DNA from: Venturia oleaginea
Lineage: Eukaryota; Ascomycota; Dothideomycetes; Venturiales; Venturiaceae
Assembly: GCA_013176395.1 (NCBI GenBank)
Contig: JABMLP010000022.1
Coordinates: 868,001 to 932,000 of the forward strand
Length of the DNA: 64,000 bases
Reading direction: 5' to 3'
Positions within the stretch are counted from its first letter, which is position 1, and each line of letters starts with the position of its first letter. Made by a program: the position numbers and the translations under genes. Positions 31,617 through 37,020 of the stretch are shown here, piece by piece. Under the pieces are notes generated by a model. The model was given only the letters and a program-made list of their open reading frames with translations. It did no database searches and was not told the origin of the DNA.

Positions 31617-31940
31617 TGCAAAATGAAGAAGTTGTGGGTCGAGTAGTGAAGCGTGTGCAGTGGATTTCAAGAAGTAAGCAGACAGAGCGATGGAGACTTT
31701 GCTCGTATGCTATCCTATTCAGTATCCCATGACAATTAGCCCTCCACTTACAAAGCCAATAATTGCTATGGTACTGAACGGGATTGACTGATAATTATTT
31801 AACATATCACTTGTCACAAATCCGTATTTAAGTTGAAGTGAACCAAAAACAACGACCAAAAATGCACTGCTGAAGGATTATCGTAACAAAAGCGAACCCC
31901 ATTTCTGCAACAAAAAGTCATTCAAGCCATTTGACTGTGA
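31617..31940. other. Intergenic, downstream of the tRNA gene on the minus strand
   Basis: No gene recognised. It contains the T5 stretch read as a Pol III terminator for the tRNA-Ser gene. Confidence 0.5.
31912..31916 (-). terminator. Candidate RNA polymerase III terminator (T5)
   Basis: On the minus strand five T residues lie 25 bases past the discriminator base of the tRNA-Ser gene, the usual kind of Pol III stop. Its presence argues that the tRNA gene is a Pol III unit, not a fragment inside an mRNA gene. Confidence 0.55.
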
Positions 31941-31961
31941 CGACACCTGAGTGATTCGAAC

Positions 31962-32015
31962 CTAGTCTTTCCATTAGCGTCTTCCGGTGTTGCACATGCG
32001 AAGGTATAAACTTAC
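31962..32015 (-). other. Intron 2 of tRNA-Ser(GCU), 54 nt, in the T stem
   Basis: Begins GTAAGT, has GCTAAT 11-12 bases before the 3' end and finishes ACTAG: a textbook short fungal spliceosomal intron by its ends. It separates GAGT from GTTCGAATCACTC; joining them restores the T stem exactly. Confidence 0.78.
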
Positions 32016-32046
32016 ACTCGCTCCCGAAGGAACGGGCTTAGCAGGC

Positions 32047-32098
32047 CTGGAGAAAATTAATTATAATATCAATATTATTTCGATGCGTGAGAACAAAC
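32047..32098 (-). other. Intron 1 of tRNA-Ser(GCU), 52 nt, in the anticodon stem
   Basis: Begins GTTTGT (the donor also used by the RFX gene in this window), is very A/T-rich, contains TTAAT about ten bases before a TTTTCTCCAG acceptor, and ends at a pyrimidine-rich AG. Removal creates a five-base-pair anticodon stem and the GCU loop. A TSEN-type tRNA intron would sit after base 37; this one is between 29 and 30. Confidence 0.75.
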
Positions 32099-32127
32099 CC
32101 GCGCGTTAACCACTCCGCCAAAGTGCC

Positions 32128-32982
32128 TGTATAGTCGTGGCTAAACAGCTTTATTGTATATATAGCTCGTCTTGATCATTGGGACTACTGCGGATCGTTG
32201 TGGACGAGTCCCCTCTTTGTATGCTCGCGGGTGGGGAGATACAGCCGAAATCGCAAGGCAAGCGTGGCAAGGCTAGCGTGGCAAGGCTGGGTAGGGAGTA
32301 CGAATCAGTAGGATTACGATAGGTTTAGAATAGAAGGAGATTTCTATAATGATCCAATCTTTTAATTGTAGGAAAATCTTTCAAGCCTTTCATCATTGGT
32401 GAAAAATTCAGCACTTGGATCAATCACGATTGCGGCAGATTCCGTTTGTTAGCTGGCCTTGTTCCGAACCCTGCATGTGGGATCAGGCGATAGAGAGCCA
32501 ACATTTATTGAGACAATTAGGTGCTAACGCTTTTAGAATTCAGCCTGGTAGCATTGTACAACTGTTGACCACTTTACTGCAGTCCAGGCTGAGATGGGCT
32601 TCACAGGCCGATCCATCCGCCTCATTTTCCTTTTCAATTGAATACGAACATAGCAAGGAATGCAAGGATGCATTCCTTCCACTTGAGATCTGCAATTTGG
32701 CCGACAAAGAGAGCTGTGAAAAGACAACTTGAAAAAAGGCCAAATGCCTTTAGTTTCGCTGCATGAGATCCTAGTTACCATAACCATCTATCGAATTGGC
32801 TTCTAGTAGTTTACGGAATGAACTCCAAAAAGTATGTAGCCGCTGTGGCCGAGCCTCTGCTATTGTACAGCTTTGTAGCTGATGGTGCAATTTTCAACCT
32901 ATGCAGCTCCTTGTTCCTTTTCTCTTCCTGTCTCTTAATCGAGTCCAATCTAATCGCATTATGCTCTCCATATTTAACACAT
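32128..32982. other. Intergenic, no supported gene
   Basis: 855 bp between the tRNA 5' end and the stop of the pyruvate carrier gene. Overlapping frames of up to 105 codons on both strands (32415-32787) have no recognised content. A short imperfect direct repeat (ggcaagcgtggcaaggct, near 32258-32290) is visible. Confidence 0.4.
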
Positions 32983-35259: not shown

Positions 35260-37020
35260 TCAGCAGCATACTTTGGTGATTGCTTTTGCGCAGCCTTGAA
35301 ACGACTCAGGTGAATAGTGTCCGATTGAAAAGAAGAACAAATCATTGGCTTTGTCGCGACGAAAGATGTTCTCGAGTTTCTCTACCTTCTTCTTCGATTT
35401 GGTTCGCTCGTCCTGGTCTTCGCCTTCGGATGCAGAATCGCCTTCTTCGATGACGCGAGCCATTGCTTTCTGCAATTTAGGTTCGCGATCTCTATTGAAG
35501 ATACTCGAGTTCTTGCTAGTCTTCTTAGCCGCAGCGTCCTTGTTGTCATTCTTCTTGTTTTCTTTATCATCAGTTTCAGAAGTTTCCTCTTCGGCTTCGG
35601 TAAAGTTCCACATCAGCTTGACCTCGCCTCGAACGATTGCCGTACCCCATAGAGAACCAAGGACGCTTGGTACCAACCAGAGCAAGGCTGGCTGCGCATG
35701 CTTGAAGATGATCATGACCCAGAGAGTCGTGATCATGCCTACAGTGTAGCCAATCACGCTCGCCCAGAAGTATGTCTTGGGGAAGGCGCCAGTTCGAAGC
35801 AAGTCGGGCCGAGGACCACGATTGGAGAACCAGGAAGAAGTCCAGAAATTCGTCCAGAAATGTTTTCCAGGAGCAATATAGTGAGCAGTCCACACTTGCG
35901 TGCCTTCAACCTTCTCTTTTGTCTTCTGCTGTCGGAGATAGTGAAGATACAAATCGAAGCGAAGAGCCAGACCAACCATCATGCCCGGAATCACAATGTC
36001 GCCCAATCCAAGCATAGAGAAACCAGCCTTGCCGTCCTTGTCTGCTGGTCGGGGAAAGAGTAACTTGATAGGGACTTCTAAATTCGTGGCTACGGTGATC
36101 ATCATTGGAGTATAGAAAACCATGATAATGTCGTAGACGAACAGTCCACAGAGGATAAGATTTCCGATACCGAAAGTAGTAGGAGATATAAGTTGGAGAG
36201 CACTATAGGAGAATGCCCATCCCATCAAATTGGTCAAGTACCATGGCTTGTCGAAGAAGAAGTAGCACCCTGTTGCGATGGACCCGAGAACCACGCCGAT
36301 GATAGTGGATGCAGTGAGATGAGTCCTTGCTGCCACGATGCGATGAACGTAGAATTTGAGAGTGATTTTGTGTCTTGGGAGTTCTCGTATTGTCCAGAGA
36401 AAATCATCGACAGAAGCAGGCAGAGGCAGCTTGCGAAGGACTCCAGGAAGTGGAGAGCTACGTTCTTCGACAACCGTTTCTCCGGCGCCTTGTCTGACTA
36501 GAGCCATTGTACGATTTGTACTGATGGCACGCCAATATCCCTTGCTATCAGCATACCATTTGGGGAAGAAGAATGAGTGGCTAAATTCTACGAGGTCGGC
36601 AAGCAGTTTGCAAATTCCGAAAAATCCCACCGTGGAGAAGTAGTAGTTCAGAACCTTGTTCAGAAGGTTCAAATCCTTCAGCCACTTGATCAGAAAGTAG
36701 AGTCCAGTCAAAGTGATGCCTGCAAATAGCGGCATGTAAAGGGCATCTCTTCGTGAGAATCCCTCCATATGCTGTACTGTGTCCTCTTCTTCATCCTGGC
36801 TGTCCTCCTCTTGACCAAATTCTCCGACGGTCTCGCTTTCGCGTGGATTCGGCTTCGCAGCGGAGGACGGGCGCGAGAGGGAGGCGTGGGCAGCTGTAAT
36901 GATGGGCAGGAGAGATGCGAGGATAACGTGGAGCTCTGTCCATAGGTATGGCTGGATTTTGCTGAAGTTGAAGGCGATGATGCCGGCGATTTCAGCCCAA
37001 AGTCCTGGTTCTGAGGACAT
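35260..37020 (-). CDS. Signal peptide peptidase (intramembrane aspartyl protease)
   Basis: Single exon, 586 aa. It carries the presenilin/SPP catalytic set: YD in LFVYDIIMVFYTPMM (about residue 297), GLGD in MLGLGDIVIPGMM (about residue 341) and the PAL motif in HAQPALLWLVPS (about residue 442). At least seven hydrophobic segments surround them. The N-terminus has a helix (HVILASLLPIITAAHA) and a Ser/Glu-rich loop. The C-terminal ~110 residues are charged and disordered (ETDDKENKKNDNKD). SPPs sit in the ER membrane and cut signal-peptide remnants and tail-anchored proteins. The last residues (GCAKAITKVCC) are atypical; a 3' intron giving a different end cannot be excluded. Confidence 0.92.
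   Translation of the reverse strand: MSSEPGLWAEIAGIIAFNFSKIQPYLWTELHVILASLLPIITAAHASLSRPSSAAKPNPRESETVGEFGQEEDSQDEEEDTVQHMEGFSRRDALYMPLFAGITLTGLYFLIKWLKDLNLLNKVLNYYFSTVGFFGICKLLADLVEFSHSFFFPKWYADSKGYWRAISTNRTMALVRQGAGETVVEERSSPLPGVLRKLPLPASVDDFLWTIRELPRHKITLKFYVHRIVAARTHLTASTIIGVVLGSIATGCYFFFDKPWYLTNLMGWAFSYSALQLISPTTFGIGNLILCGLFVYDIIMVFYTPMMITVATNLEVPIKLLFPRPADKDGKAGFSMLGLGDIVIPGMMVGLALRFDLYLHYLRQQKTKEKVEGTQVWTAHYIAPGKHFWTNFWTSSWFSNRGPRPDLLRTGAFPKTYFWASVIGYTVGMITTLWVMIIFKHAQPALLWLVPSVLGSLWGTAIVRGEVKLMWNFTEAEEETSETDDKENKKNDNKDAAAKKTSKNSSIFNRDREPKLQKAMARVIEEGDSASEGEDQDERTKSKKKVEKLENIFRRDKANDLFFFSIGHYSPESFQGCAKAITKVCC

What the first reader, a model, noticed from the sequence alone, without database searches (positions are those of the whole stretch)
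31941..32127. A tRNA-Ser(GCU) gene carrying two spliceosomal-type introns at non-canonical positions
Seen: removal of a 52-nt GTTTGT...TTTTCTCCAG block and a 54-nt GTAAGT...GCTAAT...ACTAG block leaves an 81-nt class II tRNA with every stem paired, U33, GCU anticodon, G73 and a serine-type variable arm. Unspliced, both the anticodon stem and the T stem are destroyed. Known: eukaryotic nuclear tRNA introns sit after base 37 and are cut by the TSEN endonuclease; short spliceosomal introns occur in some ascomycete rRNA genes and in U6 genes. I know of no tRNA with two such introns at 29/30 and 52/53. Inference: a Pol III transcript processed by the spliceosome, or a tRNA gene colonised by introns through reverse splicing.
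Basis: partly seen in the sequence, partly recalled or inferred. Interest (0 to 1): 0.96.

Follow-up and report, generated by a model that had tools for sequence, protein, structure and literature searches.

The report
Fungal tRNA genes with mRNA-type introns
A fungus related to the apple-scab genus carries transfer-RNA genes interrupted by short introns of the kind normally found in messenger RNA, which suggests that its spliceosome, and not only the usual tRNA-splicing enzyme, helps to make tRNAs.

Summary
On the minus strand (32127→31941) lies a tRNA-Ser(GCU) in three exons (29+31+21 = 81 nt) split by GT-AG inserts of 52 and 54 nt at 29/30 and 52/53. It is one of a family. In this 46-Mb Venturiaceae-like genome I read 14 nuclear tRNA genes (nine Ser, Leu, Arg, His, two Gly) with 17 such inserts in the D-loop, anticodon stem, T-stem and T-loop. 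All 17 start GT, end AG and have a branch-like site near the 3' end, like three protein-gene introns in the window. A second tRNA-Ser(GCU) has both introns at the same sites: spliced exons 81/81 identical, intron interiors no more alike than shuffles. Two other genes splice in silico to exactly an intron-free sister. A strict bulge-helix-bulge, the usual mark of ectopic tRNA introns, is absent from the 15 tested. Best explanation: ordinary spliceosomal introns in nuclear, presumably Pol III-transcribed tRNAs. Eight pertinent searches of the held papers listed no such report. RNA data and related genomes were not available, so splicing itself is inferred. Two U6 copies here carry such introns too, a known kind.

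The parts
32099..32127 (-). exon 1 (29 nt): acceptor 5' strand, D arm, first three bases of the anticodon stem; holds the A box TGGCGGAGTGG (32110-32120)
   Evidence: 81/81 exon identity with the C23 copy
32047..32098 (-). intron 1 (52 nt) at 29/30: GTTTGT ... TTAAT (32056-32060) ... CAG
32016..32046 (-). exon 2 (31 nt): rest of the anticodon arm with GCU, variable arm, T-stem 5' side
31962..32015 (-). intron 2 (54 nt) at 52/53: GTAAGT ... CTAAT (31973-31977) ... TAG
31941..31961 (-). exon 3 (21 nt): T loop and 3' acceptor strand, G73; holds the B box GTTCGAATC (31953-31961)
31912..31916 (-). TTTTT, candidate Pol III terminator, 24 nt after the gene
   Evidence: function inferred
32157..32164 (-). 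TATATATA, 30-37 nt upstream of the gene, possible TFIIIB site
   Evidence: function inferred

Best explanation
A nuclear tRNA-Ser(GCU) gene interrupted by two ordinary spliceosomal (GT-AG) introns, one of many such tRNA genes in this genome. Proposed path: Pol III, using the A and B boxes that both remain intact here, makes a ~187-nt precursor that cannot fold as a tRNA; the nuclear spliceosome recognises each ~52-nt intron by intron definition (GT at the start, YTRAY branch with its A 10-13 nt from the AG) and joins the exons exactly; only then does the cloverleaf form, so end trimming and, in genes that also hold a canonical 37/38 intron, the tRNA-splicing endonuclease would act afterwards. 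Shown by sequence: the exon/intron anatomy, the signals, recurrence at several sites, exon conservation against intron turnover, absence of a strict endonuclease motif. Inferred: transcription by Pol III, the spliceosome as the cutter, the order of steps.
For: 15 of 15 curated inserts are GT..AG with a YTRAY branch-like site 10-13 nt (one 19) from the end; 14 of 15 have G at position 5; 14 are 49-60 nt, one 89; two further inserts in Gly-GCC agree. Boundary-plus-branch null P 0.001-0.004 each. Three protein-gene introns of the window have the same form and size, 55, 52, 53 nt. C15 and C23: exons 81/81 identical, intron interiors at shuffle level (P 0.24, 0.79). Ser-AGA C20 and Ser-UGA C2 splice to the exact sequence of intron-free sisters C59 and C1 (for UGA after the 37/38 introns are removed too). 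13 of 13 spliced forms are called tRNAs by ARAGORN, 11 of 13 unspliced forms are not called and 2 are miscalled. Two U6 copies of this genome carry introns of the same form.
Against: No RNA evidence. Part of the catalogue was bounded by a scan that itself demanded GT, branch and AG, though 12 of 13 curated genes were found without it. Intron-free sisters exist for several of these tRNAs, so an individual interrupted copy need not be used. Some copies look decayed: Ser-AGA C27, and one T-stem mismatch each in Ser-GCU C5 and His C24. Genes with the 57/58 intron have a split B box. The window's intron 1 holds TTTT, which might stop Pol III at times. 5S genes, also Pol III, showed no insert in 33 hits.
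Confidence: 0.88

Rival explanations
1. The inserts are ectopic tRNA introns cut by the tRNA-splicing endonuclease, as in Crenarchaeota, nucleomorphs and Cyanidioschyzon.
For: Sites such as 29/30 and 53/54 are used by archaeal ectopic introns (PMC4090602, passages); this genome has canonical 37/38 introns in many tRNA genes, so the enzyme should be present. Many nucleomorph ectopic introns form no defined motif (PMC3978253, passage), so absence of the motif is not conclusive.
Against: 0 of 15 inserts have the 4-bp central helix; best 3 of 4; none beats shuffled introns (P 0.12 or more; strict geometry only, relaxed forms not tested). The rival does not explain GT, branch and AG in all of them.
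Confidence: 0.05
2. The interrupted genes are dead or dying tRNA copies into which introns or intron-like DNA fell; the intact fold after removal is a relic.
For: Intron-free sisters exist for Ser-GCU, Ser-AGA, Ser-UGA, Leu-UAG and Gly-GCC (Leu with a 37/38 intron only). C27 is degraded, C5 and His C24 have a T-stem mismatch, Arg C20 has A33.
Against: C15 and C23 exons are identical over 81 nt while introns have lost likeness; paired two-sided changes in stems, e.g. 27-43 and 28-42 in C17 against C15; both Arg-UCU loci found are interrupted at the same site and no intron-free one was found. Caveat: if introns were inserted twice independently into young copies, the exon identity would weigh less.
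Confidence: 0.06
3. The genes are spliced as proposed but are transcribed by Pol II, not Pol III.
For: Spliceosomes normally act on Pol II RNA (recalled); the two introns widen the A-to-B box distance of the window gene by 106 nt.
Against: A and B boxes are intact in the window gene and a T run follows; 10 of 13 genes have five or more T within 60 nt downstream; introns of this form sit in U6 copies here and U6 introns are known in fungi (cited in PMC5832005, passages).
Confidence: 0.1

Closest known systems
Spliceosomal introns in fungal U6 snRNA and U3 snoRNA genes
   Same: Short GT-AG introns with fungal branch sites in small structured RNAs; PMC5832005 (2017; passages) calls U3 and U6 the only small structured RNAs known to be often interrupted. 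Two U6 copies of this genome have 52- and 58-nt introns.
   Different: Here the hosts are tRNAs, at five or more sites and in five amino-acid families, with exons as short as 4 nt.
Ectopic (non-37/38) tRNA introns of Crenarchaeota, nucleomorphs and Cyanidioschyzon merolae
   Same: Introns in D, anticodon and T arms, sometimes several per gene (PMC4090602, PMC3978253; passages).
   Different: Those are ascribed to the tRNA endonuclease and mostly to BHB motifs; here no strict BHB, instead GT-branch-AG. The G. theta inserts are 3-24 nt, these 49-89 nt.
Canonical eukaryotic 37/38 tRNA introns
   Same: Present in this genome, also in some of the same genes (Ser-UGA, Ser-CGA, Leu-UAG, Gly-CCC, Gly-GCC).
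   Different: Different site, longer, GT-AG ends.
Introner-like elements of Dothideomycetes
   Same: A known source of new spliceosomal introns in related fungi (PMC4457414; search listing; a term search for Venturia, tRNA, rRNA and non-coding found nothing).
   Different: The introns are not near-identical copies: the window introns found no near-identical second copy. Of 105 intron pairs one stands out (window intron 2 and His C24, z 4.0), which may be common descent.
mRNA-type introns in fungal rRNA genes
   Same: Spliceosomal introns in a stable RNA (recalled; a 1993 title in a reference list was seen).
   Different: rRNA is a Pol I transcript; not tRNA.

Membership tests
Spliceosomal GT-AG introns | GT start and AG end | tested here: met
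   15 of 15 curated inserts and both Gly-GCC inserts
Spliceosomal GT-AG introns | branch-site motif at the usual distance from the 3' end | tested here: met
   YTRAY, A 10-13 nt (one 19) from the end in 15 of 15; partly a search criterion
Spliceosomal GT-AG introns | same size and signals as the organism's mRNA introns | tested here: met
   three protein-gene introns of 55, 52, 53 nt; a small sample
Spliceosomal GT-AG introns | removal in vivo by the spliceosome, lariat product | not testable with these tools
   no RNA data
Ectopic tRNA introns cut by the tRNA endonuclease | bulge-helix-bulge at the junctions | tested here: not met
   strict form in 0 of 15, not above shuffles; relaxed forms not tested
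Canonical nuclear tRNA introns | position 37/38 | tested here: not met
   sites 29/30, 52/53, 53/54, 57/58 and two in the D loop
Group I / group II self-splicing introns | conserved catalytic RNA of some hundreds of nt | tested here: not met
   49-89 nt; no group I or II family among the Rfam matches over 31800-32300
Introner-like elements | many near-identical copies in the genome | tested here: not met
   window introns only: no near-identical second copy at E 0.001; the other introns were compared only with each other
Functional tRNA | paired arms, anticodon loop, recognised by a tRNA finder once spliced | tested here: met
   window gene 119.2, acceptor 7/7, T stem 5/5; expression and charging not testable

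The most novel reading that the evidence does not exclude
In this fungal lineage the spliceosome is an obligatory tRNA-maturation machine: it removes GT-AG introns from the D, anticodon and T arms of Pol III pre-tRNAs of at least five amino-acid families, including a tRNA-Gly(GCC) with a 4-nt exon between two introns and the only convincing tRNA-Arg(UCU) gene found, so that decoding of AGA codons depends on spliceosomal splicing.
Probability: 0.5. Interest if true: 0.96.

Novelty: new variant of a known kind. Interest (0 to 1): 0.92.

Why it matters
[quoted passage not shown] If these introns are cut as they look, one organism uses two unrelated splicing systems on the same tRNA, and the spliceosome works on very short, presumably Pol III, RNAs with exons down to 4 nt. 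tRNA gene finders would miss such genes: ARAGORN called 0 of 13 unspliced genes correctly, so tRNA counts in such genomes would be too low. It also offers a natural system for asking how introns enter non-coding genes.

Tried and rejected
Endonuclease (BHB) introns: tested, not supported. Self-splicing introns: too short. Introner copies: none seen for the window introns. Dead-copy reading: rejected for most loci, kept as likely for C27 and possible for C5, His C24 and Arg C20. 5S rRNA genes with inserts: 0 of 33 hits; a 5S gene with a large insert could have been missed by the first look.

The motif searches for further T-stem introns gave 33, 20 and 24 hits against 34, 67 and 50 for the reversed control, so the motif alone is not enriched. 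30 of the 33 loci were cut out and 5 of these were tRNA genes in the scan, one of them new (His C24). In some searches no loci were cut out; apart from Gly-CCC C10 and Ser-AGA C13, known already and seen, those hits were not screened. The A-box search had 81 hits against 132 for its reversed control, most at 3 mismatches; I read the first 20 loci by eye and scanned all 30. The catalogue is therefore a lower bound and the share of interrupted tRNA genes is unknown: the Rfam tRNA search scored 63 of 1697 candidates. Composite queries of other isotypes (Asp, Lys, Asn, Ile; Leu, Gln, Glu, Thr) showed by coordinates no new gene with a clear non-37/38 gap; several Ile matches covered only the 5' half and were not resolved.

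Dropped rows: hits on L007, L011, L026, L029, L034 and L077, which are intact tRNA genes or lie on the AT-rich contig C38, 10 of the 11 hits in locus flanks, all on C38; the eleventh is the Gly-GCC gene. Spliced His C24 is named tRNA-Thr by ARAGORN; I call it His from its likeness to L073. L050, which I count as a Ser tRNA by eye, is not called by ARAGORN. The minimum-energy fold of the spliced window RNA is not a cloverleaf. My variable-arm columns were wrongly placed, so that arm was not tested.

Ten literature searches listed no paper on spliceosomal introns in tRNA genes; 42 (Venturia) and 51 (U6) were on neighbouring questions. Most subscription papers and bioRxiv preprints are not held. 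No related genome could be searched.

Full report
WHAT IS THERE. The window is C15:868001-932000 of a 46.1-Mb, 61-contig genome. A window protein (signal peptide peptidase, 35260-37020 minus) has its best named matches in Venturia (86% V. inaequalis, 84% V. effusa, 83% V. nashicola), and the XlnR-like gene agrees (77% V. effusa and V. inaequalis), so the organism is a member or close relative of Venturiaceae, Dothideomycetes (lineage). On the minus strand, 32127 to 31941, lie 29+31+21 nt that join into an 81-nt tRNA-Ser(GCU) once blocks of 52 and 54 nt are removed. ARAGORN scores the joined form 119.2 and finds nothing in the unspliced form or in the whole window.

IT IS A FAMILY. A DNA search, the Rfam tRNA model and an A-box pattern in the own genome showed further copies. 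Five copies of tRNA-Ser(GCU) were found: C12 intron-free; C15 (window) and C23 with introns at 29/30 and 52/53; C17 with 52/53 only; C5 with 57/58 only. Of the first 20 loci of the A-box search that I read by eye (81 hits, 30 with loci), 16 are nuclear tRNA genes by my reading and 10 of these have a GT-AG insert outside 37/38. In all I read 14 genes with 17 inserts: Ser-GCU x4, Ser-AGA x3, Ser-UGA, Ser-CGA, Leu-UAG, Arg-UCU, Gly-CCC and His (13 genes, 15 inserts) and Gly-GCC (2 inserts). Sites, by my numbering: 52/53 in nine genes, 57/58 in three, 53/54 in one, 29/30 in two, and two in the D loop of one gene. Two more genes are suspected from coordinates alone: Arg-UCU C20 (a gap of about 55 nt at the site of C6) and Gly-GCC C60 (its match starts at position 20).

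SIGNALS. All 15 curated inserts start GT and end AG, 14 have G at position 5, and all have YTRAY with its A 10-13 nt from the end (19 in Gly-CCC); 14 are 49-60 nt, one 89. The scan that bounded many of them asked for such a branch motif, but 12 genes with 14 inserts were found without it. Allowing boundary slides that keep the product, shuffled inserts reach GT-AG in 0.6-2.7% and GT-AG plus branch in 0.1-0.4% of trials; the log10 P values sum to -41.7 if the loci were independent, which gene copies are not fully, and His was found by motif. Three introns of protein genes in the window, two placed with Venturia proteins (XlnR-like) and one by reading-frame continuity with the recalled RFX domain, are GTACGT..CTAAC..CAG, GTGAGT..CTGAC..TAG and GTTTGT..CTAAT..CAG, 55, 52 and 53 nt. 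The third shares the GTTTGT start of the window tRNA's intron 1.

EXONS ARE KEPT, INTRONS ARE NOT. Window and C23 copies: 81 of 81 exon bases identical, while intron interiors (first 6 and last 3 nt left out) match in 26 and 24 bases against shuffle means of 24.3 and 25.0 (P 0.24, 0.79). Flanks of 60 nt align in 34 and 32 bases; I ran no shuffles for these. Spliced Ser-AGA C20 equals intron-free C59, and spliced Ser-UGA C2 equals C1 after the 37/38 introns are also taken out. Among the 13 Ser genes compared (9 interrupted, 4 not), the acceptor, D and anticodon columns tested and the T stem keep pairing through many two-sided changes; the unpaired cells there belong to C27 (anticodon, T) and C5 (T); the variable arm was not properly tested. 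If introns had entered young copies twice independently, exon identity alone would weigh less; the stem changes do not depend on that.

WHAT CUTS IT. A strict bulge-helix-bulge needs four pairs between exon and intron at fixed places: 0 of 15 inserts have them and none exceeds shuffled introns (P 0.12 or more). Relaxed forms were not tested, and many nucleomorph ectopic introns lack a defined motif (PMC3978253, passage), so this lowers but does not exclude that rival. The inserts are far too short for group I or II introns. The spliceosome remains. Precedent: U3 and U6 introns in fungi (PMC5832005, passages). In this genome 7 U6 hits were found; I read three of them: one of ordinary length and the two long ones, with 52 nt inside the ACAGAGA region of C12:1178091-1178250 (whose box reads GCAGAGA, so perhaps not functional) and 58 nt after GATTAGCATG in C36:59841-60006. 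5S genes show none in 33 hits.

POL III. A and B boxes of the window gene are intact, the 52/53 intron falling just before the B box; TTTTT follows 24 nt after the gene and TATATATA precedes it. In 10 of 13 genes a run of five or more T lies within 60 nt downstream; inside introns the longest run is 4, once, in the window's intron 1. The three 57/58 introns split the B box. That Pol III transcribes these genes is inferred.

STRONGEST SINGLE CASES. (a) Gly-GCC at C2 (L038 651-835): introns of 50 and 52 nt flank a 4-nt exon, TGGT, in the D loop, and a 37/38 intron follows; the joined exons match intact Gly-GCC L080 outside the 37/38 intron; removing only one D-loop intron gives no tRNA call. (b) Arg-UCU: two nuclear loci were found, both interrupted at 53/54; the C20 copy has A at position 33, leaving C6 as the only convincing gene. 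No intron-free copy appeared in the DNA search (12 of 12 candidates scored) or among the 13 readable rows of an anticodon-loop pattern (52 hits, letters of 39 withheld), so a divergent intron-free copy is not excluded. AGA occurs 29 times in 2278 codons of four frames.

ORDER OF STEPS (inference). Genes with both a T-arm intron and a 37/38 intron probably need the mature T arm for endonuclease recognition and end trimming, so spliceosomal removal should come first.

NOVELTY. Reviews seen in passages place nuclear tRNA introns at 37/38 except in algae and nucleomorphs (PMC4090602, PMC3978253) and call tRNA splicing spliceosome-independent (PMC13149111). Ten searches, eight of them directly on the point, listed no report of spliceosomal introns in tRNA genes; the library lacks most subscription papers. 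The machinery is known, the host class is new as far as I could see: a new variant of a known kind.

Noticed in passing
L117 (C12:1178085-1178256) and L118 (C36:59835-60012): Two U6 snRNA copies with GT-AG introns of 52 and 58 nt at different sites, beside U6 copies of ordinary length.
   Followed up: partly
L038 651-835 (C2, 658 nt before the Ser-UGA gene): tRNA-Gly(GCC) with two D-loop introns around a 4-nt exon plus a canonical intron.
   Followed up: yes
C23:763712-763736, just downstream of the Leu-UAG gene (in L043, minus strand): A partial second copy of the Leu tRNA 3' end with what looks like its own T-stem intron (GTAAGC...AG before GTTCGAACC): a local duplication that includes the intron.
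   Followed up: partly
   Followed up: partly
C60:1432826-1432887: tRNA-Gly(GCC) whose match starts at position 20, as in the C2 copy with D-loop introns; probably a second such gene.
   Followed up: no
L110 (C24:198427 onward) and window intron 2: The T-stem intron of His C24 and the window's intron 2 are the most alike of 105 intron pairs (z 4.0); may be common descent or chance.
   Followed up: no
contig C38 (L011, L013, L016-L018, L021, L023, L026, L029, L033, L056): Contig with many closely set, intact tRNA genes of another style and AT-rich spacers; looks mitochondrial.
   Followed up: no
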